Shown in pieces: positions 868-42,047 of a DNA stretch of 45,016 nt. The position numbers and the translations under genes were made by a program. Below the pieces are notes generated by a model. The model was not told the DNA's origin. It worked only from the letters and a program-made list of their open reading frames with translations, and did no database searches. Source of the DNA: Porticoccaceae bacterium (GTDB lineage Bacteria; Pseudomonadota; Gammaproteobacteria; Pseudomonadales; Porticoccaceae). The stretch spans positions 1 through 45,016 of the forward strand of contig JAQWYJ010000077.1 of the NCBI GenBank assembly GCA_029254005.1. The letters run 5' to 3'. The number at the start of each line of letters is the position of its first letter. The first letter of the stretch is position 1.

Positions 868-2565
868 TTATATACGAGAGCGCAATAATTTGGTGTCGGC
901 ATTGCGCCAAGCGTACTTAAAGTCGTTGCCTACTTGTTCAGCTTCTTTTAGTTTGCCTTGGGAGCTAAGACTCTGCCATAAACCAAATAGCGCCCAACCA
1001 TTGTTTTTATGCCAGTCTAAGTCTTGCCTATATATAACTTCTGCTTCTGCAGCTCGGCCGGCCTCCAATAGAGCATCCCCGAGGTAGTGTCTTATAGGTT
1101 GAGGCCAGTCAGGTGGTTCGATATAGGCATTCTTATCTTCAATAAGGATGGCTGCTTGATAGTCTTTTATAGCGCCATTAAGGTCTCCACTAGCCTGCTT
1201 GATTTCACCCGAAAGAGCCGCTGCTGCCAATTTTAGAATAGACGAAACTGGAGTGGGGCCAACTCGATTCTGGTCAATATCCTTGAGGATTGTTATATTT
1301 AATATCGACTCTAGTTCAAAACGGGCTGCATTTAGATCGCCACTTGCGATCAGTGCTCCTCCACGACAGTAATGCCAGATACCGTCAAGATAGGGCGTTC
1401 CAGAGGCTAGCGGTTGGCTTTTTAGTATTGATTCCCAGCGACCAAACATTTTATTCACTAAACAGACACTAGATAGGCGCTTTTGGTTTCTTCCCAATTT
1501 ATAGTCGTTTGGATTAATCTTGGATACTAACGTATTTGCTGCTTCAATTGCTGTTAAATAATTTCCTTGAAAGGACGCTGCATATTTTATGAAATCAACG
1601 GCATGGGGTGCATGAATCTTCGCTGATAATGGGTAGGTACCCAAGTTGGGTAAAGGTCTATCACCCCACATTTCTAGGAATTCATTATCAACTTCTTGAG
1701 AGCGAATATTGCTCGCTATAGCTTTATCAAATTGACCAACTCGCACATAGATATGCGAAGGCATGTGCACCATGTGTCCTGCCATAGGCATTGTGGCGGC
1801 TAATCGATCAGCTGATGCAAGTGCACGCTCAGGTTCTCTTGAGGCTTCCATTAAATGAATATAAAGATGGTTGGCACCGGGGTGATCAGGTTGAGAGGCC
1901 ATTGTATTCTCCAGTACCGTCGCCACTTTCCCGGTATCACCTACTGGAGACCCATCATGGTTCCAATAATTCCAGCGACCGATGTTCATAAAAGATGTGG
2001 CATAAAGAGATGCTATGTCAGGGTCATTTGGGTATTTTCTTTGTAGTTTTTCAGTGGCTTTTAGATAAGCAAGGTCGCGCTCATGACTGTCAGAAATAGA
2101 GTTTTGATCATACAACACATATAGCGCGTTTATCATGTCGCGTTCAGTGGGCGTGGCATTGTCAACTAAACGTAGGGCTTTGTTGATGGCTTTTAGTCCT
2201 TCGCCCTTTGGGTCATCTGGCATTCTGCTATAGCGGCTGTTCGGATTTGGCCCCATTGCGTGTGCTAGACCCCAATAGATCATTGGATGCGTTGGATCAT
2301 GCAGCGCTGCTTGTTGGTATGAGGCGATTGATTCAGGAAAGTAAAAGCCCCAAGCGTAACGTAAGCCTTGGTCAAAAAACTGTTGAGCCAGCGTATTTGA
2401 GGTAGAAATAGTGCGGTAATACACCCCAGAGCCTTCGATTAAGATTGCTTTATGGGTGTTGTTTCTTGTCGATTGTGCTGAGTTGGCCGTTGCTACTGAC
2501 GGAAAAACACTAGCGATTAATGCTGCGAACACACAAGGTTTTATATAACGGGCCAATATATTCAT
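868..2565 (-). CDS. Exported tetratricopeptide-repeat protein
   Basis: The 565-residue protein starts with a Sec signal peptide (basic MNILARYIK, hydrophobic core, Ala-rich cleavage region near residue 27), so it should be periplasmic. There is no lipobox. TPR-like helical pairs are visible near the N-terminus (AQQFFDQGLRYAWGFYFPES, then PMIYWGLAHAMGPNPNSRY) and again in the C-terminal third (ASGDLNGAIKDYQAAI, YLGDALLEAGRAAEAEVIY, ALFGLWQSLSSQGKLKEAEQ). Proteins with this layout are common in marine Gammaproteobacteria and Bacteroidetes but have no assigned function. TPR domains usually scaffold protein-protein contacts. The gene lies just downstream of liuE on the same strand with a 72-base gap that holds its own candidate promoter. 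It is therefore probably not a required part of the liu operon. No catalytic motif is visible. Confidence 0.8.
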   Translation of the reverse strand: MNILARYIKPCVFAALIASVFPSVATANSAQSTRNNTHKAILIEGSGVYYRTISTSNTLAQQFFDQGLRYAWGFYFPESIASYQQAALHDPTHPMIYWGLAHAMGPNPNSRYSRMPDDPKGEGLKAINKALRLVDNATPTERDMINALYVLYDQNSISDSHERDLAYLKATEKLQRKYPNDPDIASLYATSFMNIGRWNYWNHDGSPVGDTGKVATVLENTMASQPDHPGANHLYIHLMEASREPERALASADRLAATMPMAGHMVHMPSHIYVRVGQFDKAIASNIRSQEVDNEFLEMWGDRPLPNLGTYPLSAKIHAPHAVDFIKYAASFQGNYLTAIEAANTLVSKINPNDYKLGRNQKRLSSVCLVNKMFGRWESILKSQPLASGTPYLDGIWHYCRGGALIASGDLNAARFELESILNITILKDIDQNRVGPTPVSSILKLAAAALSGEIKQASGDLNGAIKDYQAAILIEDKNAYIEPPDWPQPIRHYLGDALLEAGRAAEAEVIYRQDLDWHKNNGWALFGLWQSLSSQGKLKEAEQVGNDFKYAWRNADTKLLRSRI

Positions 2566-2598
2566 AGGAAAACCTGTAAAAGGATTAAGTCAACAATG

Positions 2599-2627
2599 AG
2601 TATAATCGGTCAATATAGATTTGGTAA
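2599..2627 (-). promoter_or_regulatory. Candidate sigma70 promoter for the TPR gene
   Basis: Read on the minus strand, TTACCA (2627-2622) is followed after 17 bases by TATACT (2604-2599). It lies in the 72-base gap between the liuE stop and the TPR start. The fit is moderate and the call rests on pattern matching only. Confidence 0.4.
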
Positions 2628-2637
2628 ATCGTTAGTT

Positions 2638-3555
2638 CTACCCAGCGGACAACAGAGCATTGGCAACTTTGGAGCCATTAGTTCGATTTAGTGCAGTGGA
2701 TATTGTGTTTCCAGCAATTAATAATTTATCCAGATCTACACCATGCTCAATACCCATTCCATTGAGCATATATATCAGATCTTCACTAGCGACGTTACCT
2801 GATGCGCCCTTAGCATAGGGGCAGCCACCCAAACCAGCTACTGCGCTATCAATCACGGAAATACCCATTTGTAGCGAAATCAAGATGTTCGCTAGCGCTT
2901 GACCATAGGTGTCATGCATATGCATGGCCAGTTTGTCGGCTGAAATTCTGCTCAACAATTCACTCAATAGTGCAGCGGTCGTTGCAGGAGTGCCGACACC
3001 AATAGTGTCACCTAAGGACACTTCATAGCAGCCCATATCTAACAATTGATGTGTAACCTCTGCTACATGCACAGGATCAATGTTGCCTTCGTAGGGACAG
3101 CCAAGGACACAGGATACATAGCCGCGTACGCGAATATTGTTTCTTCGAGCTTTGGCCATGACTGGATTAAACCGTTCTAGGCTCTCTTTGATTGAGCAGT
3201 TGATATTTTTTTGACTAAAGCTTTCTGACGCAGCTGCAAACACGGCAACTTCTTTGATGCCATACTCTAAAGCTCTATTCATACCAATTTTATTAGGTGT
3301 TAGAGCGCTAAAGATGATCTCTGGATAAGTTGGTTGTAGGTTACTACTGATAATATTAAACACCTCATCACTACCGGCCATTTGTGGAACCCACTTTGGA
3401 CTAACAAAACTTCCCGCTTCAATATTGGTTAATCCTGCACTGGCAAGCTGACTAATCAGCTGAACTTTTGTACTTGTTCCTACAGTTTGTTTTTCATTTT
3501 GTAGCCCATCGCGAGGGCCGACTTCAACGATACGCACACGCTTTGGAATGGTCAT
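2638..3555 (-). CDS. liuE: Hydroxymethylglutaryl-CoA lyase
   Basis: This enzyme cleaves 3-hydroxy-3-methylglutaryl-CoA to acetyl-CoA and acetoacetate, the last step of leucine/isovalerate catabolism. At 305 residues it has the usual bacterial length. The N-terminal [11 protein letters not shown] (11-21) is the DRE-TIM-type metal and substrate loop. HMHD (212-215) supplies metal-binding His residues, and [11 protein letters not shown] (240-250) carries the signature catalytic Cys245. The start overlaps the liuD stop by four bases, which implies translational coupling. The gene is last in the liuABCDE order. Homocitrate/isopropylmalate synthases share the fold, but the GLGGCPYA signature and the operon context favour HMG-CoA lyase strongly. 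Confidence 0.96.
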
Positions 3556-5456
3556 AGGTCGAACGCCTCAAATGATAATAACTCGGCATCAGCTTCAACC
3601 AGAGAGCCGGCTTGAAAGTAAAATTCAGTAACCACGCCATCGCTCGGTGCTATGACGGTATGCTCCATTTTCATGGCTTCCATGATCACCAGGGTGTCAC
3701 CTTTTTTGACAGTAGCGCCAGCAGTAACCATTAGCGCAATCAAAGTTCCATGCATAGGTGCCTTGAGGTTGTCGCGATCAACATCTTCGTTATTCACTCC
3801 CAAGTCTGGGTATAGTTGACGGCAGTGAAAGAAACCCTCAGGGGTGAATAAATCAAAGCCGTCGTTTTTAGACGCAATGGTTGAATGGCTCAGGTCAGCA
3901 TAGCTCTCCGCTGATAACACACATTCGTTCTGCTGTATTTCCATTCTAATAACAGACATTGGCCGCCCCCAGTTGTTATTTAAATGCCACGGTGAGTTAG
4001 CCTCATTGGATTGTTTCGCGATTTTAGTAGCATCGTCGTGGCGAAGATTGAAAATAGCAGATGCCGCTAGTGGTGCAGCGTAGTCAAGGTCTTGTTGACG
4101 TTGACGGAATATTTCATCGTGATGATGTTGTATAAATCCAGTGTCTACATCGCCATCTCGAAAGGCTTGACTAGTGGCTAGATTGTAAAGAAACCCAATA
4201 TTGGTTGTTACACCTGCAATGCGGTATTTACTCAGAGCTTCGGTTAGGCGAGTAAGCGCTTTTGCTCGAGTGGTGCCCCAGACAATGAGTTTGGCAATCA
4301 TGGGGTCATAATAGATACTAACCTCATCACCTTGCACAACACCTGTATCGACTCGAATATAGCTACCTTCTGAGGGCGGCTTTAATAGACTTAGCCGTCC
4401 GGTCGCTGGTAGGAAATCATTGTCAGGATCTTCTGCATAAATGCGCGCTTCAAAAGCATGGCCATTGATCTTTAATTGCTCTTGTGAGCAGGGCAGCGAC
4501 TGGCCAGCCGCCACAATAAGTTGCCAAGCGACTAGATCTTGCCCACTGATCATTTCAGTGACAGGATGCTCAACCTGAAGTCGAGTGTTCATTTCCATAA
4601 AAAAGAAATCACCACGGCTGTCTAAGAGAAACTCGACCGTTCCTGCGCCCTCATAATTGATTGCACGGGCTGCTTTTATTGCTGCGGCACCCATTTTTTG
4701 ACGTAATTCAAGGGTCATACCAGGTGCGGGCGCTTCTTCGATCACTTTTTGATGTCGACGCTGTACCGAGCAGTCACGCTCAAATAGATAAACTGCATTT
4801 TGATGGCTATCACAAAAGACTTGAATTTCCACATGTCGTGGCTTGAGAAGATACTTTTCGACCAACATTAAGTCATCATTGAAGCTGCTTAATGCCTCAC
4901 GCTTAGCTGCAATTAATGCTTGATCGAACTCCTCTGCGCAATGAACTGCCCGCATCCCTTTGCCACCGCCACCCGCTGCTGCTTTGAGTAGCACCGGGTA
5001 GCCCATTTTTTCAGCTTCGCTTTTCAGTAAGGCAGAGTTTTGATCATCACCATGATAGCCAGGCACTAAGGGGACATCGGCATTAGCCATAATAGTTTTA
5101 GCTGCAGACTTAGAGCCCATGGCCAAAATAGCATCAATCGGCGGGCCAATAAATGTGATGTTATGCACGGCGCACTGACGACAAAACTCAGCATTTTCAG
5201 ACAGAAATCCATACCCCGGATGCACTGCTTGAGCGCCTGTTTCTGTAGCTGCTTGTATAATTTTATTAACCACTAAATAGGATTCTTTAGAGGGCGCGGC
5301 TCCAATGTAAACGGCTTCATCAGCCATTTTGACATGAAGAGCACTGCTATCGGCATCGCTAAAGACGGCGACAGTTGCAATACCCATTTCACGGGCTGTT
5401 TTAATAATTCGGCAAGCAATTTCGCCCCGATTGGCAATTAGTATTTTAGTAAACAT
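3552..5456 (-). CDS. liuD: Methylcrotonyl-CoA carboxylase alpha (biotin-carrying) subunit
   Basis: The protein carries out the ATP-dependent carboxylation of biotin that is then used to make 3-methylglutaconyl-CoA from 3-methylcrotonyl-CoA. Its 634 residues hold a biotin carboxylase module from the N-terminus ([13 protein letters not shown]; Gly-rich [16 protein letters not shown]-grasp loop; [31 protein letters not shown]). A linker domain follows, then a C-terminal biotinyl domain with EAMKMEH, the modified Lys being about residue 596. The length fits MCC alpha better than acetyl-CoA carboxylase AccC (~450). The neighbouring carboxyltransferase LiuB completes the complex. The start is nine bases after the liuC stop. 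Propionyl-CoA carboxylase alpha is the main alternative, and operon context argues against it. Confidence 0.95.
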
Positions 5457-5464
5457 GGTAGGTG

Positions 5465-6250
5465 TTAGTCCTTTGGCCAGTTGGGCTTTCGTTTGTCTAA
5501 AAAGGCGCTTATACCTTCCTGTCCCTGAGCGCTTACCCGAGTGCTGGCAATCATCTCACAGGTGTGTTCAATCAGCGTTGAGTCAATGGATTTACCACTC
5601 ACAGCAAAGACTAGCTGTTTAGCAGAGGCAACAGCTTCAGGGCCATTGCAGAGTATTGCCATGATTAGTTTTTCTACTTTGTCATCCAGTAGCTGTTTAT
5701 CAACTGCTTCGTGAATTAGGTCTATTTGTACTGCAGTATTGGCATCAAAGCGTTCTGCCGTCATAAAGTATCGCCTTGCATGGCGCTCTCCAATGGCGGC
5801 AATCACGTAGGGACTAATAGTTGAGGGAACTAAACCAATTTTAACTTCACTGAGAGCAAAGCTAGCATTAAATGACGATACGGCTATATCGCAACAGCTG
5901 ATAAGTCCAACGGCACCGCCAAAGGCCGCTCCCTGCACTTTAGCAATGGTAGGCATAGGCATTTGATGAAGAGCTTTAAGCATTGCAGCTAATGCATGTG
6001 CATCGTTTAGATTTTGTTGATATGAATAACTGGCCATGCGCTTCATCCAATTAAGATCGGCCCCCGCCGAGAAGCTTTTGCCCTCTGATTTTAGCAACAT
6101 GATGCGCACCTTTGCATTGACTGCGAGAGCATTAAATGCATCGGTAAGTTCAATAATCATCTGATCATCAAACGCATTGTGCTTGTCAGGATTGTTAAGG
6201 GTCACCTGAGCAATGCCGCGGCTATCAATTTGAGTGATGACTTTATTCAT
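5465..6250 (-). CDS. liuC: Methylglutaconyl-CoA hydratase (crotonase family)
   Basis: This hydrates 3-methylglutaconyl-CoA to HMG-CoA, linking the carboxylase LiuBD to the lyase LiuE. The 261-residue protein has the crotonase fold: a SFSAGADLNWMKRM oxyanion-hole strand, a second oxyanion-hole segment AAFGGAVGLISCCD, and LSEVKIGLVPSTISPYV. The last resembles the segment around the catalytic Glu of methylglutaconyl-CoA hydratases. The position between liuB and liuD is the standard one in proteobacterial liu clusters. From sequence alone crotonases are easily confused, so the substrate is assigned from context. Confidence 0.92.
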   Translation of the reverse strand: MNKVITQIDSRGIAQVTLNNPDKHNAFDDQMIIELTDAFNALAVNAKVRIMLLKSEGKSFSAGADLNWMKRMASYSYQQNLNDAHALAAMLKALHQMPMPTIAKVQGAAFGGAVGLISCCDIAVSSFNASFALSEVKIGLVPSTISPYVIAAIGERHARRYFMTAERFDANTAVQIDLIHEAVDKQLLDDKVEKLIMAILCNGPEAVASAKQLVFAVSGKSIDSTLIEHTCEMIASTRVSAQGQEGISAFLDKRKPNWPKD

Positions 6251-6281
6251 GACTATTTTTTAATCTCAGTATAGGTTGCAC

Positions 6282-7889
6282 TTACATTCTAAAGACACCA
6301 AATTTGGTATCCTCAATGACTCGGTTATGACTGGCAGAAATTGACAGGCCTAACACCATGCGAGTATCTGCAGGGTCAATTACACCGTCATCCCAAAGCC
6401 GCGCAGAGGCATAGTAGGGATGTCCTTGATGCTCATAATTCTCAATAATCGGCTGTTTGAAGCTTGCTTCATCCTCAGGGCTCCAATCAGTACCATCGCG
6501 TTCATATTTGTCTCTGGTGACCTGAGCCAGCACACCGGCTGCCTGCTCGCCACCCATAACAGAAATACGCGCATTGGGCCACATAAACATAAATCGTGGA
6601 TCATAGGCGCGACCGCACATGCCGTAATTACCAGCGCCAAAAGAGCCGCCAATCAATATGGTAAATTTAGGCACATTTGCGGTGGCAACGGCGGTTACCA
6701 TTTTGGCGCCATGCTTGGCGATACCATCGTTTTCAGATTGCTTACCAACCATAAATCCGGTGATATTTTGTAAAAAAACCAATGGAATTTTACGCTGGGC
6801 ACACAATTCAATAAAGTGCGCGCCTTTTTGAGCAGATTCACCAAAGAGAATCCCATTGTTGGCGACAATTCCCACCGGATAACCAAAGATATGCGCAAAT
6901 CCGCACACCAGTGTGGTTCCGTACAGCGCCTTAAACTCATCGAAATCTGAGCCGTCGACGGTCCGTGCAATGATCTCGCGGACATCATAAGATTTACGCG
7001 AATCTGCAGGCACAATGCCGTAGATTTCCTGGGAAGCATAGACTGGGTCAATAGCTTTTTTTAGATCACCATTGATGGGTTTGACTCGATTAAGCCTTGA
7101 TATTGCTTTACGTACCAGATCTAGCGCATGATGATCATTGTTAGCCAAATGGTCGGCAACGCCAGAAATGCGTGCATGCACCTCGCCACCACCAAGGTCT
7201 TCAGCAGTGACCACTTCACCCGTGGCCGCTTTGACTAAGGGCGGTCCAGCCAGAAAAATAGTACCCTGTTCTCTAACAATAATGGACTCATCAGCCATAG
7301 CAGGAACATAGGCGCCACCGGCAGTACAGGAGCCCATAACCGCGGCAATTTGCGGAATATTTTGCGCTGACATGTTAGCCTGGTTAAAAAAGATTCGCCC
7401 AAAATGCTCTCTATCGGGGAATACGTCGTCTTGCCTAGGAAGATTAGCACCACCAGAGTCGACCAAGTAAATGCAGGGTAAGTTGTTCTCTGCGGCAATA
7501 GCTTGGGCGCGCAGGTGTTTTTTTACAGTAAGGGGATAGTAGCTTCCGCCTTTTACGGTAGCATCGTTGGCAACGATGACGCATTCTTGGCCACTGACAC
7601 GACCAATGCCAGTAATAATGCCAGCAGCAGGCACTTCCTCAGGATAAACATCATGTGCCGCTAATGCTGACAATTCTAGAAACGGTGATCCAGCATCCAA
7701 TAACCCGTCAACACGCTCTCGAGGAAGTAACTTACCACGGCTAACATGGCGTTCACAGGATTGGATGCCACCGCCCTTAGAAATATGGGCTAGCTTAGTT
7801 TTTAGATCGTCGACCTTGACTTGCATGGCGTTTGTATTAGTTACAAATTCTTTACTGTTCGTGTTGAGTTTACTGTTGATTACCGACAT
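6282..7889 (-). CDS. liuB: Methylcrotonyl-CoA carboxylase beta (carboxyltransferase) subunit
   Basis: The beta subunit transfers CO2 from biotin on LiuD to 3-methylcrotonyl-CoA. It has 535 residues, typical of MCC beta. Both halves of the carboxyltransferase fold are present. The N-half has [36 protein letters not shown] and [15 protein letters not shown]; this stretch, with PRQDDVFPD, is characteristic of MCC rather than propionyl-CoA carboxylase. The C-half has [22 protein letters not shown] and [20 protein letters not shown], with the oxyanion-type glycines of the second crotonase fold. It follows liuA by nine bases and precedes liuC by 31. Several long ORFs in other frames within it are shadows. 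Confidence 0.96.
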
Positions 7890-7898
7890 AGAAACTCC

Positions 7899-9068
7899 TC
7901 AAACGGTTTCAGCAAAAAGTTCGCGGCCAATCAACATGCGTCGTACTTCAGAGGTGCCGGCGCCAATTTCATAGAGTTTAGCGTCACGCAATAACCGAGC
8001 AGCTGGATAGTCATTGGTATAGCCATTACCGCCAAGTGCCTGAATGGCCTGCAGGGCCATCTGTGTGGCTTTCTCAGCAGTAAATAAGATGACTGCAGCG
8101 GCATCTTTGCGTGAGTCTTGGCCAAGATCACAGGCTCTGGCAACCGCATATAGATAAGCCCGCGAGGCATTTAAATCTGCGTACATATCGGCAATCTTGC
8201 CTTGCATAAGCTGAAATTGGCCAACCGGTTGGTCGAATTGCTTGCGTTCATGAATGTAGGGCATTACTACATCTAGACAGGCCTGCATTATGCCTACTGG
8301 TCCGCCAGATAATACAGTACGCTCATAATCAAGACCTGACATAAGAACTGCGACGCCACGACCTTCTCCGCCAAGAATGTTTTCAGCAGGAACCTCACAG
8401 TTTTCGAACACAAGTTCGCAGGTATTTGACCCCCGCATGCCCAATTTATCGAGTTTTTGTTGGCGAGAGAAGCCAGGATAGTTGCGTTCCACAATGAAAG
8501 CAGTAATGCCTTTAGAACCTAAGGTAGTGTCAGTTTTTGCATAAATGATGTAAGTGTCTGCGTCTGGTCCATTGGTAATCCACATTTTGCTCCCATTGAG
8601 CACGTAGTAATTGCCATGCTTTTCAGCTTTGAGCTTCATACTTACTACATCTGAGCCTGCATTGGGTTCACTCATGGCCAGTGCTCCAATATGCTCACCG
8701 GAACAGAGCTTAGGTAGATATTTGTGCTTTTGCTCTTCGGTACCGTTTTTGTGAAGCTGATTTACACACAGGTTTGAGTGCGCACCATAGGACAAGCCAA
8801 CTGAAGCGGATGCTCTGGAGATTTCCTCCATGGCAATACAATGGGCTAAATAACCCATATTGGTTCCGCCGTATTGCTCTGCTACGGTAATTCCAAGCAA
8901 TCCCATATCGCCAAGTTTTAACCATAGGTCCATCGGAAACTCGTTGCCGCTATCAATGCTAGCAGCTCGCGGGGCGATTTCTTTGCGACAAAATTGAAAA
9001 ACGCTGTTTCGGAGCATATCGTTATCTTCACCAAGATTAAAATTTAATGTGGGATAGCTGGTATTCAT
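7899..9068 (-). CDS. liuA: Isovaleryl-CoA dehydrogenase
   Basis: A flavoprotein that oxidises isovaleryl-CoA to 3-methylcrotonyl-CoA and passes electrons to ETF. The 389-residue acyl-CoA dehydrogenase shows the N-terminal helical domain, the FAD/substrate segment [17 protein letters not shown] (129-145), and [17 protein letters not shown]. The helix [19 protein letters not shown] places the candidate catalytic Glu at 249; isovaleryl-CoA dehydrogenases carry their base in this helix instead of near the C-terminus as in medium- and short-chain enzymes. The C-terminal [19 protein letters not shown] is also typical. The start overlaps the liuR stop by four bases, so regulator and first enzyme are coupled. 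Confidence 0.96.
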
Positions 9069-36407: not shown

Positions 36408-39134
36408 ATGCAAATCGTGGTGAGAAACAGTCGGTTATTGAAAATTTTTGCTTTGTTAGTCATTGCGCTACTATGTTTTAAAAGTGTAAGTGCTGTAGCG
36501 CATGCAGAGCATGATAAAGCACGCTATGTGTCTACAACTGGCGTTGATAGCGGTAAATGTGACAACCCATCAGAGCCTTGTAGGTCAATTTCTTATGCGG
36601 GGTTACAATCAAATAAGGGTGACCGTATTCGTATGGCAGCGGGAACCTATAAGATTGACGATGTAGATACGTTATTTTATCTGCTAAGTGATCTTGTTCC
36701 TGTCAATGGTCTTTATAGCCAAGCAACTAGTTTTAAGCAACCTGATACTAAAAATATTACTCGTTTGTCAGGCGTGCCGTTGGAGTTTGCTGACAAATTG
36801 GCACAAAAAGGCTTTACTGTTATTGTTGATTCTAAAGGTATGGATGCTCAAAAAACGCTTCAAATTCGCGAAAAGATGCAAGTTTATGCGCGGCTCTCAG
36901 AGGCTAAGATTTCCGCGCCCTGTATAGATGGATTTGCTGGAGACTATCCCTGTCAGAATCTTGATTTATTATCTCATTTACCCCTGTCAGAATTTTCTAT
37001 TAATCCGTCTGCGGCCAATGATGTCTGGGGATTTTATGATTTAAACGACGGCAAAGAATACGCCATTATTGGATTGTACAATGGTGTGAGTGTGGTAGAG
37101 GTTACTGATCCAGAAGCGCCAAGAATCGTGGCGAGCCTTGAGAGTCAGTCAACCTCATGGAGAGACATTAAAGTTTACCAACATTTTAATTCTACTACAG
37201 CGCAATGGGATAGTTATGCCTATGTCACCGCCGACAGTGCATCAGTTGGAACAATGATAGTTGATTTGCGGTCTTTACCTGAGGCTGTTTCGATCTTGGG
37301 CTCTGAGGGGAGCGATATTAGCGCTCATAATGTCTACCTAAGTAATGTGGACTACTCTTTGGGAATTGCCTTAAATGACGTCCAGCCATACCTTCATATA
37401 GCAGGATCAAACCGGCAGGGTGGTGCTTTTAGTACCTACCGCTTGGATAATCCACAAAGCCCTGTTGCGATCTATCGCAATGCATCTAGTTCACGCTCTA
37501 ACTACAGTCATGACGTTAGTTCAATGATAATCAACGATCAGCGCAAAAATACTCAATGTCTGACACCTGGACCTCTCTGCGAAATATTTTTTGATTTTAA
37601 TGAAGACAATTTTCAAATTTGGGACAAAACCAACAATAGTAATCCTGGTCGATTGAGTACAACGGCCTACGAAAATGTGTCCTATGTGCATTCAGGCTGG
37701 TACACCGAGGATAAACAGGTAGTGGTGATTCATGACGAATTAGATGAAATGGATTATGGTTTAAATACTGCGGTGCGTTTTTTTGAGCTTTCTGATTTGC
37801 GTGGACCGACTCTGCTCTCTACCTGGTTTGGCCCCACCGGAGCCATTGACCACAATGGCTTTGTTCGAGGTAATCGATATTATATGTCTAATTATACTAG
37901 AGGCATGACGGTGTTGGATATTTCTGATGCGTCTAATCCATATCAAGTGGGTTTTTTTGACACCTTTCCTGTGTCTGACAATACCTCGTTTAACGGTGCT
38001 TGGGGAGTTTATCCCTATTTACCAAGCGGTGTTGTGTTAATAAGCGATATTAGTAGTGGTCTTTACATTGTTCGTGATGACACTGTGTCTCCTCCCCAAG
38101 GAGGGGTCCGTTTTACAGAGCAAAACTATAGTGTGGAGGAGGGGAGTTCTGTTACTCTCAATGTGGAACGGTACGGTGGCAGCCAAGACTCTGTAAGTGT
38201 TAAATGGGAAATGCTGTATGGTTCCACTGATTCTGCTGACATAACTGTGGCTGCCGGAGAGCTGGCATGGGCCGAGGGTGATAGCCAAGTGCAGACCGTG
38301 AGGATTGAAATTCAAGCAGATGAATCGCCTGAACCCAAGGAGATGTTTTTTGTTCGTTTATATGATCCTAAGGGTGGCTTATCAGTGGCGTCACCGAGCT
38401 TGGCTATGTTGGAAATCGCATCAAGTACCGGTGTGGAGCAAGTTGAGATCGACTTAGGTGAAGACCTTAGCGTATCTGCTGGCCAAACGGTAAGAATCAA
38501 AGCTGTTGTCTCTGGCTTTGATGAAAGTTCTGCAGTCTATAATTGGGAGCAAATAGCTGGTGAAACTGTTACCCCGGCGGGGCAAAATAGTAACGTTTTT
38601 GAATTTACTGCCCCGATAATTGAAAATCAGCTAGTGTTTTCTCTCAGTGTTAGTGATGATCAAGGCGCCTCTGCAAGTAGTTCGATAACTGTCTCGGTGA
38701 ATGCTAATCAAAATCCTGTAGTTGATGCGGGAAATAATCTTAGCGTCCAGGCAAATGCTGATGTCAGTCTTCGGGGGTCAGCAACAGATGTTGAGAGTGA
38801 GGATTTAACCTTTTTATGGGAGCAGACAGCAGGTCCAAGTGTATCGTTAAATCAAGCTAATCAGGCTACAGCACAGTTTAGTGCTCCCTCAACATCTTCT
38901 CAGTTGACTTTTGCACTAACTGTCACCGACGCCATGGGGGGCGTTGGTGTGGATTCAGTGTCTGTTTCTGTTGTGTCACCGCAACCTATTGTTGCGCCAC
39001 AGAATAGCGGCGGAGGTGGATGCGCCGTTGTGATGACAGGTTCGAAAGATTCTTCGTTGCCGCTGCTGCTGCTTGGAGCAAGCGTATTGATGTTCAGACG
39101 TCGCTATCAAAAGGGACTTCATCTAGAGTGTTGA
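36408..39134 (+). CDS. Choice-of-anchor B surface protein with Calx-beta and PKD-like domains and a GGGGC sorting tag
   Basis: A 908-residue exported protein. It has a signal peptide (hydrophobic IFALLVIALLCF, cleavage near residue 30-33), a short parallel-beta DUF1565-like piece (YVSTTGVDSGKCDNPSEPCR), and an LVIVD-type beta-propeller of the choice-of-anchor B kind at about 185-560 (DVWGFYDLNDGKEYAIIGLY, GVSVVEVTDPEAPRIVASL, MTVLDISDASNPYQVGFFDT). A Calx-beta domain (about 565-675) and two PKD/Ig-like domains (about 680-855, each with a YNWEQ or FLWEQ motif) follow. The last 41 residues are GGGGC, a hydrophobic run (LPLLLLGASVLMF) and RRRYQ. It is probably anchored at or released from the cell surface. 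The ligand is unknown. Confidence 0.88.
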   Translation: MQIVVRNSRLLKIFALLVIALLCFKSVSAVAHAEHDKARYVSTTGVDSGKCDNPSEPCRSISYAGLQSNKGDRIRMAAGTYKIDDVDTLFYLLSDLVPVNGLYSQATSFKQPDTKNITRLSGVPLEFADKLAQKGFTVIVDSKGMDAQKTLQIREKMQVYARLSEAKISAPCIDGFAGDYPCQNLDLLSHLPLSEFSINPSAANDVWGFYDLNDGKEYAIIGLYNGVSVVEVTDPEAPRIVASLESQSTSWRDIKVYQHFNSTTAQWDSYAYVTADSASVGTMIVDLRSLPEAVSILGSEGSDISAHNVYLSNVDYSLGIALNDVQPYLHIAGSNRQGGAFSTYRLDNPQSPVAIYRNASSSRSNYSHDVSSMIINDQRKNTQCLTPGPLCEIFFDFNEDNFQIWDKTNNSNPGRLSTTAYENVSYVHSGWYTEDKQVVVIHDELDEMDYGLNTAVRFFELSDLRGPTLLSTWFGPTGAIDHNGFVRGNRYYMSNYTRGMTVLDISDASNPYQVGFFDTFPVSDNTSFNGAWGVYPYLPSGVVLISDISSGLYIVRDDTVSPPQGGVRFTEQNYSVEEGSSVTLNVERYGGSQDSVSVKWEMLYGSTDSADITVAAGELAWAEGDSQVQTVRIEIQADESPEPKEMFFVRLYDPKGGLSVASPSLAMLEIASSTGVEQVEIDLGEDLSVSAGQTVRIKAVVSGFDESSAVYNWEQIAGETVTPAGQNSNVFEFTAPIIENQLVFSLSVSDDQGASASSSITVSVNANQNPVVDAGNNLSVQANADVSLRGSATDVESEDLTFLWEQTAGPSVSLNQANQATAQFSAPSTSSQLTFALTVTDAMGGVGVDSVSVSVVSPQPIVAPQNSGGGGCAVVMTGSKDSSLPLLLLGASVLMFRRRYQKGLHLEC

Positions 39135-39147
39135 TGAGTATTCTTGC

Positions 39148-39627
39148 TTAGCGGCAAGCCTTGGCGTTAAGCGGGACATCTCGTTTAATTAGTTGATTAA
39201 GAATGATTGTTGATTCAATACCCTCTACCATAGGTACGTTCGCTAGTTTTTCTTTGAGAAATAGCTCAAAAGACTGAAGCGTATCTGTAGTTACTCGCAA
39301 TACATAGTCATGGGACCCCGCTAAAACACAGCACTCAGTGACTTCATACAGGTCAGCAACTGCTGATTCAAAATCAGACGCGTTTGCTGACGTATTTTTG
39401 TTGACCTTTACAAATACGAAGGCCGATACGATTGCACCAATCATTTGATGATTCAGGCGAATAGTATAGCGTTCAATTAAGCCGCTTTCTTCAAGATTGC
39501 GAAGCCTCCGCAAACAGGGTGTCTGAGAGAGATTAACCTTGGCAGATAGCTCAGCATTGCTTATGCGTGAATTGTTTTGCAGTACATTTAAAATGCTAAT
39601 ATCAATATTGTCTAATTTTTTATTCAT
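39148..39627 (-). CDS. Lrp/AsnC-family regulator, divergent from the PrnB-like/kynureninase-like genes
   Basis: A 159-residue protein with an N-terminal helix-turn-helix (LDNIDISILNVLQNNSRISN, then KVNLSQTPCLRRLRNLEESGLI) and a RAM effector domain (VTECCVLAGSHDYVLRVTT). It resembles Lrp/BkdR-type local regulators. It is divergent from the PrnB-like gene across 141 bases that contain a repeated 10-bp element, the classic layout for an amino-acid-responsive regulator of an adjacent catabolic operon. Tryptophan, kynurenine or a related compound is the obvious candidate effector, which is inference. It is distinct in sequence from the Lrp at 9722. Confidence 0.9.
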   Translation of the reverse strand: MNKKLDNIDISILNVLQNNSRISNAELSAKVNLSQTPCLRRLRNLEESGLIERYTIRLNHQMIGAIVSAFVFVKVNKNTSANASDFESAVADLYEVTECCVLAGSHDYVLRVTTDTLQSFELFLKEKLANVPMVEGIESTIILNQLIKRDVPLNAKACR

Positions 39628-39768
39628 TTGTAGGGTTATATGCTAAGTTATTTGAATTATTAGTTAATATAGCACTATTTTTTGAATTTAAGGCTTTTTA
39701 ATTGACTGAAAATGCCACTGCAGTTTTGTTAATATAGTGGTTTTAGAATACCTATTAGGACAATTTAC
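39628..39768. promoter_or_regulatory. Shared control region with repeated GTTAATATAG element
   Basis: GTTAATATAG occurs twice in the same direction, at 39663-39672 and 39728-39737, 65 bases apart (about six helical turns). TTGACT (39702-39707) lies between them as a possible -35 for the plus-strand genes, but no standard -10 sits at 17 bases. AGGA at 39757-39760 is the Shine-Dalgarno of the PrnB-like gene. Lrp octamers often bind such phased AT-rich sites. Confidence 0.5.
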
Positions 39769-40938
39769 ATGACCCAAAAAGCGCGCGCACTAGATTGCTG
39801 GATTCGTAATGATTTCAGAGCGATGAATACAGAACTAGAAGAATTATATTTTAAAAATTGCGATTCGACTGAATCTGTGGGTAATGATACTAAAAACCAA
39901 CTGGTGAATGAGGGTAGATCGCTGATAAAAGATCTGCTTGATGAAGGCAATACTGATGAAGGTTTTGATAGCGGATTTGAATTACTCGGCGATGTAGGTT
40001 TTTATATGGCTGCTTGTCGTCGACATGATATAACCGAACCTTCCCGTGAAACAAGATCACCTTTGCAAGAAGCCTCAGCTCTGGCTATGCAGCTAGGTGC
40101 CTCCCTAGGGGTGATTCCGCGTTTTGCATCTTGTCATTTAGAAACTCACAACAGGGCTGTAAATGGTCAATATAAAACCTTCACTTCTCTACCTGATGAA
40201 AAACTTTTTATTGATTACAATACCCGCGGAGTATTTTCTTTTATCCGAGCATCCGAAGCTTTGCGAAATTGTTTGCCCTTAGGTGTTTCACACCCTATTA
40301 CTTATGATTTGTTGGTTACAGCTAAGGTGGCATTGGAGGAGGTCTATGTCTCTAATGCAAGCCTCTTTGATCAGTTGGATACTAACCGATTTTTTTACTG
40401 TGTAAGGCCATACTACCGACCTCATCGTGTTGGTTTACATGAATACAGAGGTGCTAATGCAGGAGATTTTGCCGGAATTAATGTCATAGATTTGTTACTT
40501 GGTGTCTGTAAAGGCGATGACCCTTACTACTCACAATTGCTGGTAGATAAATTCTTGTTCATGCGTCCTGAAGATCAACTGGTGCTGCGAGACTGTATGC
40601 GGCGTAAAAGTTTGCTAGACAGTTTTTTAGACTGTAAAGAGGAGCATCGCTATGATGATTGGTTCCAGTCTAATATGGCTATGTTCATACAGGTGTGTGA
40701 GGTTCATGGCAAGGTGGCTACCCAGCATCATGAGCGGTTGGTACACAAATTTATAGAGGGTCCTGCTGAGGCGGGAGCGCATATTGATCAGACGGATCTC
40801 ACTGCGAGCGGCCCACCGTTGCCAGTGCTTTTGAAAGGGCTACGTAAACTATGTGATATGCGCTGTGCGGCACCGGCCACAGAGGGCTTTAATACTCGAT
40901 TTAAGGATATGCAAAGTCTGAGGGACTGCTTGTTATGA
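39769..40938 (+). CDS. PrnB-like haem-dependent dioxygenase-superfamily protein
   Basis: A 389-residue protein that I recognise as a member of the PrnB (DUF1864) family, related to tryptophan and indoleamine 2,3-dioxygenases. PrnB of pyrrolnitrin producers rearranges 7-chlorotryptophan to an aminophenylpyrrole. Landmarks are SFIRASEALRNCLPLGVSHP, FYCVRPYYRPHRVGLHEYRG (a conserved Arg/Tyr-rich substrate loop) and FIQVCEVHGKVATQHHERLV, with His313. That is the number I recall for the proximal haem ligand in PrnB; His320, His321 and His326 are nearby alternatives. It overlaps the kynureninase-like gene by four bases. PrnA, PrnC and PrnD are absent, so pyrrolnitrin synthesis is unlikely. A tryptophan-cleaving or modifying role is inferred. 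Confidence 0.78.
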   Translation: MTQKARALDCWIRNDFRAMNTELEELYFKNCDSTESVGNDTKNQLVNEGRSLIKDLLDEGNTDEGFDSGFELLGDVGFYMAACRRHDITEPSRETRSPLQEASALAMQLGASLGVIPRFASCHLETHNRAVNGQYKTFTSLPDEKLFIDYNTRGVFSFIRASEALRNCLPLGVSHPITYDLLVTAKVALEEVYVSNASLFDQLDTNRFFYCVRPYYRPHRVGLHEYRGANAGDFAGINVIDLLLGVCKGDDPYYSQLLVDKFLFMRPEDQLVLRDCMRRKSLLDSFLDCKEEHRYDDWFQSNMAMFIQVCEVHGKVATQHHERLVHKFIEGPAEAGAHIDQTDLTASGPPLPVLLKGLRKLCDMRCAAPATEGFNTRFKDMQSLRDCLL

Positions 40939-42047
40939 TTGCTAATAGATTTGTTGATCAGCAGGGTATTTATCTGCTTAGTCACTCTGTAGGTCTACCA
41001 TTAAAATCATCCTTGGCAGGCGCACGTGATGCATTTTGGCAGCCATGGTTAGGCGCTGATGAGCATATCTGGAGTCAGTGGTTAGGACAAATTGAACATT
41101 TTCGTGACCAGCTTGGACTTTTACTAAATAGCGATTCATGCAACTTTTGTCCGCAGACAACTATTTCTAGCGCTGTGAATAAAATTATATTTTCTCTGTC
41201 CGCGCGGTCTGATAAAAATATTATTCTGATGAGCGAAGAAGACTTTCCTTCAGTAGCCTATGCACTGCAGCAAGCCTGTGGTTTGGATTATCAGGTGCGC
41301 TACATTCCGGCAGGTGTTGATCTAAACGATATGTCGATATGGGATGAATATCTTACTGATGATGTGGCACTAGTTCTAATTACTCAGGTGCAATCAAACA
41401 ACGGAGTTCAATTACCTGTAGACGCTATTACAGCAATAGCAGCGCATAGGTCGATCCGTTCGATAGTCGACATCGCTCAAGCTATTGGTATTCTCCCTAT
41501 TGATATACAAACCGGATCTGCAGATTTCATCGTTGGATCCTGTGTTAAATGGCTAAGCGGCGGCCCAGGTGCTGCATTTTTATGGGTTAGTCCAGACATA
41601 ATAGAGCAGTGTCATCCGCAAAATGTTGGCTGGTTTTCTCATGAAGATCCTTTCGAATTTGATATACACAATTTTCGCTATGCTAAGGATGCATTGCGAT
41701 TTTGGGGAGGTACTCCGTCAGTCTATCCCTTTTGTGTGGCATCATCGAATCTTGAATTTGTCAATAGTTTCGGAGTGGCTGTACTTCGAGAGCACAACGT
41801 ACAGTTATGCCAACAAATCATTGATAGTTTAGATCAGGATGAGTTAATGTCTCCCGCTATAGCTAACCAACGTAGCGGTACCTTAATTGTCCACTTCGGC
41901 AAAAGACATCAGCAGATAACCAATAGCTTACGCCGTGAGGGTATTAAATTTGATAGCAGATCAAAGGGTATACGACTGTCTCCACATATCTACAATACCG
42001 AAGATCAAATAAGTACCTTGGTTCAGCATATAGAGGATAGCCGTTAA
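40935..42047 (+). CDS. Kynureninase-like PLP-dependent enzyme (aminotransferase class V fold)
   Basis: The 370-residue protein has the fold-type I PLP core. Asp179 is in SIVDIAQAIGILPIDIQTG (ring-nitrogen contact), and Lys205 in GSCVKWLSGGPGAAFLWVSP is the Schiff-base Lys. The GGPGAAFLWV segment closely resembles the kynureninase motif (YKYLNxGPG...FLWV). It differs from standard kynureninases in being shorter (370 against about 410-420) and in having AQAIG where they have a HSxG-type sequence. The neighbour is a tryptophan-dioxygenase-superfamily protein, with a four-base overlap. Hydrolysis of a kynurenine-type side chain is therefore the leading idea. A cysteine desulfurase-like or other lyase activity is possible. 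Confidence 0.8.
   Translation: MIANRFVDQQGIYLLSHSVGLPLKSSLAGARDAFWQPWLGADEHIWSQWLGQIEHFRDQLGLLLNSDSCNFCPQTTISSAVNKIIFSLSARSDKNIILMSEEDFPSVAYALQQACGLDYQVRYIPAGVDLNDMSIWDEYLTDDVALVLITQVQSNNGVQLPVDAITAIAAHRSIRSIVDIAQAIGILPIDIQTGSADFIVGSCVKWLSGGPGAAFLWVSPDIIEQCHPQNVGWFSHEDPFEFDIHNFRYAKDALRFWGGTPSVYPFCVASSNLEFVNSFGVAVLREHNVQLCQQIIDSLDQDELMSPAIANQRSGTLIVHFGKRHQQITNSLRREGIKFDSRSKGIRLSPHIYNTEDQISTLVQHIEDSR

What the first reader, a model, noticed from the sequence alone, without database searches (positions are those of the whole stretch)
39148..42047. Compact Lrp / PrnB-like dioxygenase / kynureninase-like module: possible new tryptophan-type degradation pathway
A PrnB-family protein (tryptophan-dioxygenase superfamily, candidate haem ligand His313) overlaps by four bases a kynureninase-like PLP enzyme (Lys205, GGPGAAFLWV), and a local Lrp regulator diverges from them. 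Pyrrolnitrin partners (halogenase, PrnC, PrnD) are absent, as are canonical TDO and kynurenine formamidase. The arrangement suggests ring-opening of an indole amino acid followed by side-chain cleavage, with the kynureninase-like enzyme perhaps acting on a formylated or otherwise unusual product. The functional reading is inference; family assignments are from motif recognition.
Basis: partly seen in the sequence, partly recalled or inferred. Interest (0 to 1): 0.8.

Follow-up and report, generated by a model that had tools for sequence, protein, structure and literature searches.

The report
Alternative two-enzyme tryptophan-opening operon
A marine-type bacterium carries a compact two-gene unit in which an uncharacterised haem enzyme appears to stand in for tryptophan dioxygenase and feeds an unusual kynureninase-like enzyme, pointing to a little-known bacterial way of breaking down tryptophan that can be tested directly.

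Summary
In detail: a divergent Lrp gene, a PrnB-family haem protein and a kynureninase-like PLP enzyme overlapping it by ATGA. The haem protein is 56% identical to Shewanella SO4414, solved with haem (2NWB). In 65 of 80 named loci the PLP gene lies directly downstream.

Key evidence is partner exchange. A profile of the PLP family finds 22 of 293 genomes of the order (at least 437 bits; next 215): 16 beside the PrnB-like gene, 6 beside a divergent tryptophan 2,3-dioxygenase (TDO). Four of those six group inside the PrnB-partnered ones (support 86); two sit at the family's unresolved base. TDO occurs in 0 of 18 PrnB genomes of that sample and in 1 of 48 reached through named loci. A Trp/Tyr permease follows the pair in four loci.

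Best reading: the PrnB-like enzyme replaces TDO, opening tryptophan to N-formylkynurenine; the PLP enzyme cleaves the side chain. It keeps the kynureninase pocket but lacks Tyr226, Asp132 and His204, so it is no canonical kynureninase. Corrections: His320/His321 is a likelier haem ligand than His313, and lack of formamidase is not special to this module. Function is inferred; nothing was assayed.

The parts
39148..39627 (-). Lrp/AsnC-family regulator, divergent from the pair
   Evidence: Lrp equivalog model 110 bits against a cut-off of 233; divergent Lrp in 40 of 80 named loci
39628..39768 (.). intergenic region between lrp and the PrnB-like gene, presumed promoter/operator
   Evidence: short conserved blocks in 13 aligned SAR92-type regions (window included); no operator shown
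39769..40938 (+). PrnB-family (SO4414-type) haem protein, predicted TDO-equivalent
   Evidence: PF08933 567 bits; 56% identity and TM 0.94 to 2NWB, titled putative 2,3-dioxygenase in complex with ferric heme
40726..40731 (+). His320-His321, best candidates for the proximal haem ligand
   Evidence: His320 in 93 of 93, His321 in 91 of 93; opposite the IDO1 haem-ligand helix in a weak profile alignment
40935..42047 (+). kynureninase-like PLP enzyme, overlapping by ATGA; PLP lysine Lys205
   Evidence: best fold match 1QZ9 kynureninase, TM 0.90

Best explanation
The pair is a two-enzyme tryptophan (or close indole amino acid) degradation unit. The SO4414/PrnB-type protein binds haem through a histidine and does the job of tryptophan 2,3-dioxygenase, opening the pyrrole ring to N-formyl-L-kynurenine. 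The PLP enzyme then removes the side chain as alanine, acting on N-formylkynurenine directly or on kynurenine after deformylation, and leaves N-formylanthranilate or anthranilate. The divergent Lrp probably senses the amino acid or kynurenine, as KynR does in Pseudomonas. Shown here: families, a haem-bound close homologue, operon conservation, exchange of the PrnB-like gene for a TDO, residue pattern. Inferred: substrates, products, order of steps and regulation.
For: Partner exchange: 22 of 293 genomes carry the PLP family; by coordinates 16 lie beside the PrnB-like gene and 6 beside a TDO, none without such a partner (gene order). Those TDOs exceed the Pfam cut-off (6 of 6); the 4 of 6 that were aligned keep Phe51, His55, Tyr113, Arg117, Ser124 and a C-terminal His shared with two other TDOs (roles recalled). 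TDO in 0 of 18 PrnB genomes of the order sample and 1 of 48 reached through named loci. Kynureninase pocket residues Ser36, Trp64, Phe129, Asp201, Lys227, Trp256, Gly281, Thr282 and a C-terminal Arg are kept in at least 73 of 75 PrnB-partnered and 6 of 6 TDO-partnered proteins (roles recalled). A full-length Trp_Tyr_perm gene (420-458 bits) directly follows the PLP gene in L065, L068, L069 and L078, and a 92-aa piece of one in L073. Haem- and PLP-protein distances correlate (r 0.85, 0 of 2000 permutations as high, 68 loci; shared species history could give this too). Fold: haem-bound SO4414, PrnB, then IDO; kynureninase first for the PLP enzyme.
Against: PrnB of pyrrolnitrin, a distant relative, rearranges its substrate and was inactive in vitro with O2 or H2O2 (PMC11791213, abstract and passages). 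The PLP family lacks the kynureninase Tyr226, Asp132 and His204 and scores far below the kynureninase cut-off; one of three members scanned prefers SufS. 8 of 80 PrnB-like genes have no such PLP gene next to them, nor do 2 of 18 in the order sample (G427, G586) and 2 of 5 others in the phylum sample (L004, L007). 19 of 48 PrnB genomes also hold a canonical kynureninase. Zero overlap of PrnB and TDO in 293 genomes is by itself not significant (P 0.12). The Lrp is missing in 37 of 80 loci. The partner TDOs are themselves divergent (L134: 131 bits against an NCBIfam cut-off of 390.7). The tree does not say which partner came first.
Confidence: 0.6

Rival explanations
1. The haem enzyme mono-oxygenates tryptophan or a derivative (to an oxindole, hydroxylated or cyclised product, as MarE, PrnB or IDO side reactions do), and the PLP enzyme cleaves or deaminates that product; the pathway is not a kynurenine pathway.
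For: The structural relative PrnB does a ring rearrangement (PMC11791213, abstract); mono-oxygenation is reported for IDO and MarE (PMC12921851, passages). The PLP family has replaced Tyr226, Asp132 and His204 of kynureninase.
Against: A TDO takes the place of the PrnB-like gene beside the same PLP family. The substrate-pocket residues of kynureninase are kept.
Confidence: 0.22
2. The module makes a secondary metabolite or signal (as pyrrolnitrin does, or anthranilate feeding a quinolone) rather than serving catabolism.
For: Name and chemistry of the PrnB family; the module sits in many different genomic contexts.
Against: Among the 40 largest neighbour clusters of 80 loci, looked at by eye, I saw no recurrent biosynthetic gene; recurrent ones were Lrp, MarR, a Trp/Tyr permease and lineage-specific synteny. 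Not searched with biosynthesis models.
Confidence: 0.1
3. The PLP protein is a cysteine desulfurase or related C-S lyase and its link to the haem gene is incidental.
For: Same fold type; SufS 77.6 bits for the window protein and 93.6 (above kynureninase 80.5) for L134.
Against: 22 of 22 carriers in the order sample lie beside a haem tryptophan-oxygenase gene; best sequence and fold match of the window protein is kynureninase; kynureninase pocket residues kept.
Confidence: 0.04

Closest known systems
Aerobic kynurenine/anthranilate pathway (KynA TDO, KynB, KynU, with Lrp-type KynR in Pseudomonas)
   Same: haem tryptophan oxygenase followed by a kynureninase-type PLP enzyme, Lrp-family regulator nearby; a TDO takes the place of the PrnB-like gene in 6 genomes
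   Different: haem enzyme from the SO4414/PrnB branch instead of TDO; PLP enzyme from a separate clade lacking Tyr226, Asp132 and His204; no KynB found in the genome
SO4414 of Shewanella oneidensis (PDB 1ZEE, 2NWB)
   Same: 56% identity and TM 0.94, haem-bound in 2NWB; two Shewanella loci, L085 and L088, carry the Lrp-PrnB-PLP arrangement
   Different: function not established in what I saw; only labelled putative 2,3-dioxygenase in the PDB title
PrnB of pyrrolnitrin biosynthesis
   Same: Pfam family and fold (TM 0.64-0.72)
   Different: 15-17% identity; PrnB rearranges 7-chlorotryptophan and is not described with a PLP partner
Canonical kynureninase (P. fluorescens 1QZ9, human KYNU)
   Same: fold TM 0.90; PLP lysine and substrate-pocket residues
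   Different: about 21% identity; Tyr226 to Val/Ile/Leu, His204 to Gln, Asp132 mostly to hydrophobic, Cys224 to Ser/Thr

Membership tests
Pfam PF08933 (PrnB / SO4414 family) | score above the curated cut-off over the full length | tested here: met
   567 bits, cut-off 27, positions 1-386 of 387
Histidine-ligated haem-dependent aromatic oxygenases (IDO/TDO/PrnB) | superfamily fold | tested here: met
   AF2 model (pLDDT 86.9) matches 2NWB, then PrnB, then IDO structures
Histidine-ligated haem-dependent aromatic oxygenases (IDO/TDO/PrnB) | haem bound through a histidine | tested here: inconclusive
   the 56% identical homologue was solved with ferric haem (title); invariant His320, near-invariant His321 and His313; ligand not seen directly
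Pyrrolnitrin PrnB orthologue | close sequence relation to characterised PrnB | tested here: not met
   15-17% identity to PrnB structures
Pyrrolnitrin PrnB orthologue | prnA, prnC and prnD in the genome | not tested
   not searched with models; none seen by eye in the adjacent genes
Tryptophan dioxygenase activity | makes N-formylkynurenine | not testable with these tools
   inferred from partner exchange
Kynureninase (NCBIfam TIGR01814 equivalog) | score above the curated cut-off | tested here: not met
   95.7 against 246.4 bits
Kynureninase | substrate-pocket residues and PLP lysine | tested here: met
   residue roles recalled
Kynureninase | Tyr next to the PLP lysine (Tyr226), Asp132, His204 | tested here: not met
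   Val/Ile/Leu in 75 of 75 and Val in 6 of 6 at Tyr226; Gln in 81 of 81 at His204; at Asp132 hydrophobic in 72, Thr in 2, unread in 1 of 75, and Met in 6 of 6
Cysteine desulfurase SufS (TIGR01979) | score above the curated cut-off | tested here: not met
   77.6 against 475.1 bits
KynR (Lrp-type kynurenine regulator) | orthology and control of the operon | not tested
   only divergent position and Lrp family shown

The most novel reading that the evidence does not exclude
A formamidase-free tryptophan pathway: the SO4414-type haem enzyme makes N-formylkynurenine, and a new class of PLP hydrolase, built on the kynureninase pocket but without its Tyr226, Asp132 and His204, cleaves N-formylkynurenine directly to N-formylanthranilate and alanine; two distant haem oxygenase families (PrnB-type and TDO-type) are interchangeable in front of it.
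Probability: 0.33. Interest if true: 0.72.

Novelty: new variant of a known kind. Interest (0 to 1): 0.6.

Why it matters
The SO4414 branch of the PrnB family has had solved structures since 2005-2006 (release dates), and I found no function for it in the papers I could search (listings only). The partner exchange gives a concrete, testable function and substrate. The family is widespread (373 genome stretches confirmed by tblastn), and TDO was found in only 1 of 48 carriers searched, so an annotation that looks for TDO would miss the step in them. It also offers a natural comparison of what makes a histidine-ligated haem enzyme dioxygenate, mono-oxygenate or rearrange tryptophan, and exposes a kynureninase-like enzyme that does without the usual tyrosine next to the PLP lysine.

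Tried and rejected
His313 as haem ligand: set aside as best candidate because it is Phe in L160 and L180. Lack of formamidase as a distinguishing feature: rejected, KynB above cut-off in only 2 of 78 genomes (20 more have matches below it) and missing in 12 of 14 genomes with TDO and canonical kynureninase. IDO as the hidden replacement for TDO: IDO above cut-off in 1 of 78 genomes (G687). Mutual exclusion of PrnB-like and TDO as proof: 0 of 18 is not significant alone. Cysteine desulfurase: judged unlikely for the window protein. A PLP gene near the PrnB-like gene in L079 and L086 is a different, 27%-identical type on the opposite strand; I counted those two loci as having no PLP partner. Conserved intergenic blocks were not resolved into an operator. 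Papers: searches for SO4414 or the PrnB-kynureninase pair gave no paper that I judged relevant from the listings; one search listed 40 of 169 papers, of which I opened two. The structure paper of SO4414/TDO, the KynR paper and the superfamily review are not held, so prior description there cannot be excluded.

Rows dropped or thinned: the tree used 72 of 129 proteins (every second PrnB-partnered and canonical row) by the quick method, and the tool warned that long branches meet, so joins between the PLP clade, the canonical kynureninases and the odd rows may be false. The distance test excluded L017, L138, L150, L153, L156, L157 and L158 by name (apparent copies of other loci, or without a full-length pair) and loci lacking full-length members; 68 remained. 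Of 50 loci sent, L061 and L083 were not held and not searched; 30 of the 80 loci were not sent. Some of the 48 genomes appear to be the same as genomes of the order sample. TIGR01814 missed seven genomes whose loci hold the PLP gene by BLAST, so it undercounts this family. One search listed matches at E 1e-40 or better and scored at most 6 first-look candidates a genome. The 75 rows called PrnB-partnered are 72 downstream, 2 on the opposite strand and 1 (L015) not adjacent; only identical rows were removed.
Full report
What is there. The genome (G000, 2.55 Mb, 147 contigs, 94% complete) has one PrnB-like match, no TDO, no IDO and no KynB match, and one match to the kynureninase model, the window's own gene. 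The nearest named relatives are SAR92-clade/Porticoccaceae genomes.

The haem protein. It matches PF08933 over its whole length at 567 bits. The closest solved structures are SO4414 of Shewanella oneidensis, 1ZEE and 2NWB, at 505 bits. The AF2 model (pLDDT 86.9) fits 2NWB with TM 0.94 at 56% identity, and that entry is titled a putative 2,3-dioxygenase in complex with ferric heme. PrnB proper follows at TM 0.64-0.72 and 15-17% identity, then IDO structures. So this is the SO4414 branch and not a close relative of the pyrrolnitrin enzyme. In 93 aligned members His320 is invariant, His321 is kept in 91 and His313 in 91; the two that lack His313 keep His320 and His321, the two that lack His321 keep His320 and His313. 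A weak profile alignment (E 0.096) puts the IDO1 haem-ligand helix opposite His320/321 (that His346 is the ligand is recalled). His320 or His321 is therefore the better candidate, not proved.

The PLP protein. Best family models are kynureninase (95.7 bits) and SufS (77.6), both far under their cut-offs; best solved relative by sequence is P. fluorescens kynureninase; best fold match of the AF2 model (pLDDT 93.0) is the same protein, 1QZ9, TM 0.90, with SufS structures close behind at 0.84-0.87. Of two further members scanned, L153 prefers kynureninase (88.1 against 84.7) and L134 prefers SufS (93.6 against 80.5), so sequence scores alone do not settle the family. In an alignment of 75 PrnB-partnered, 6 TDO-partnered and 44 canonical proteins, Ser36, Trp64, Phe129, Asp201, Lys227, Trp256, Gly281 and Thr282 (P. 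fluorescens numbering) and a C-terminal Arg (taken to be Arg375 from recall) are kept in at least 73 of 75 and in 6 of 6. Asp132, His204, Cys224 and Tyr226 are invariant in the 44 canonical rows; in the 81 others His204 is Gln throughout, Tyr226 is Val, Ile or Leu throughout, Cys224 is Ser or Thr throughout, and Asp132 is hydrophobic in 78, Thr in 2 and unread in 1. Roles of these residues are recalled from the kynureninase literature. In a quick tree the family forms one side of a branch with support 100, apart from the canonical kynureninases; the tool warns that long branches meet there.

Conservation. A scan of GTDB genomes confirmed 373 stretches related to the haem protein; the best 80 were kept. 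Of these 80 loci, 65 have the PLP gene directly downstream on the same strand, 2 next to it on the other strand, 1 nearby but broken, 4 end at the contig, and 8 have none. In the 65, the projected gap is an overlap in 22, 0-30 bases in 33 and 31-150 in 10. A divergent Lrp is present in 40, absent in 37, contig too short in 3. Surroundings differ widely. Recurrent extra genes are a MarR-type regulator (5 loci, 4 of them scanned and all 4 over the Pfam cut-off), a Trp/Tyr permease right after the PLP gene (L065, L068, L069, L078 full length at 420-458 bits, a piece in L073), and HPPD near L018 and L056. In a phylum-wide sample the haem family is rare: 6 of 398 genomes over the cut-off, the window's included; of the other five, three have the PLP gene next to it and two (L004, L007) do not. 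Haem-protein and PLP-protein distances correlate (r 0.85, 0 of 2000 permutations as high, 68 loci), which joint inheritance with the species would also give.

Partner exchange. In an order-level sample of 293 genomes, the haem family is in 18 and TDO in 32, with no genome in both. A profile of the PLP family finds 22 genomes at 437 bits or more; the next score is 215. By coordinates, 16 of the 22 lie beside the PrnB-like gene and 6 (G512, G447, G403, G557, G539, G521) beside a TDO; none lacks a haem partner (gene order). The two PrnB genomes without it are G427 and G586. The chance that all 22 fall in the 50 genomes with either oxygenase, ignoring phylogeny, is 1e-19. The TDO partners are open frames of 253-319 aa, score 87-97 bits to PF03301 (cut-off 34.9, 6 of 6); four of the six were aligned and keep columns that match TDO active-site residues (roles recalled). 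They are divergent: L134 has 131 bits against 390.7 for the NCBIfam TDO model. Their PLP partners are 38-47% identical to the window's. In the tree four of these six lie within a 30-row group of mostly PrnB-partnered rows (support 86) and the other two at the unresolved base of the family, so the partner has changed at least once; which came first is not shown. Among 48 PrnB-bearing genomes reached through named loci, TDO occurs in 1 and a canonical kynureninase above cut-off in 19.

Interpretation. The same PLP enzyme family works downstream of a TDO in some genomes and of the SO4414-type haem protein in others. The simplest explanation is that both haem enzymes deliver the same or an equivalent product, N-formylkynurenine from tryptophan, and that the PLP enzyme cleaves its side chain. 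The permease and the kept kynureninase pocket agree. Whether the substrate of the PLP enzyme is N-formylkynurenine or kynurenine is open. Lack of KynB fits direct use of the formyl compound but does not prove it, because 12 of 14 tested genomes with TDO and canonical kynureninase also lack KynB above cut-off. The loss of Tyr226, Asp132 and His204 suggests that the chemistry is not handled as in known kynureninases.

Against. PrnB proper, the distant relative, ligates the substrate amine to haem and showed no activity with O2 or H2O2 in vitro (PMC11791213, abstract and passages). Mono-oxygenation by members of this superfamily is reported (PMC12921851, passages). Stand-alone copies of the haem gene exist (8 of 80; also L154, L159, L160 and L180), so it may have other partners or uses.

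Literature. KynR, an Lrp-type regulator, controls the kyn genes in P. aeruginosa (PMC12451312, passages). Searches for SO4414, PrnB with kynureninase or Shewanella, DUF1864/PF08933 and a combined kynurenine query listed no paper that I judged to describe this module, but the papers most likely to mention SO4414 are not held. The Shewanella regulon paper (PMC3223726, passages) had no word beginning with kyn. A coral genome paper lists DUF1864 in a table (PMC6214176, passage).

Verdict. Real, conserved, and by genomic evidence a new variant of the kynurenine/anthranilate pathway; biochemical function unproven.

Noticed in passing
window 36408-39134 (+): Choice-of-anchor B family protein (TIGR04312, 449 bits) with PKD and Calx-beta domains and a JDVT-CTERM-like tail just under its cut-off (26.2 against 27); a related gene was found in 5 of 80 loci, all close relatives.
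   Followed up: partly
window 868-9068 (-): Run of genes that looks like a leucine/isovalerate degradation (liu-type) cluster: HMG-CoA lyase and biotin carboxylase over their cut-offs, with hydratase, carboxyltransferase and acyl-CoA dehydrogenase relatives below theirs (cluster name recalled).
   Followed up: no
   Followed up: yes
L079:2587-4870, L086:1852-4120: PrnB-like gene convergent with a CDGSH-looking gene (by eye) and a different PLP enzyme (27% identical to the window's); possibly another partner type.
   Followed up: partly
L160, L180: Stand-alone PrnB-like genes with Phe at the His313 position; L180 lies on a Novosphingobium plasmid with an Lrp-looking gene (by eye) just upstream.
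   Followed up: partly
genomes G667, G672, G679, G686, G698, G700 and others: 19 of 48 PrnB-bearing genomes also carry a canonical kynureninase although TDO was not found in 47 of the 48; what supplies it with kynurenine is unexplained, and the PrnB-like enzyme is one candidate.
   Followed up: no
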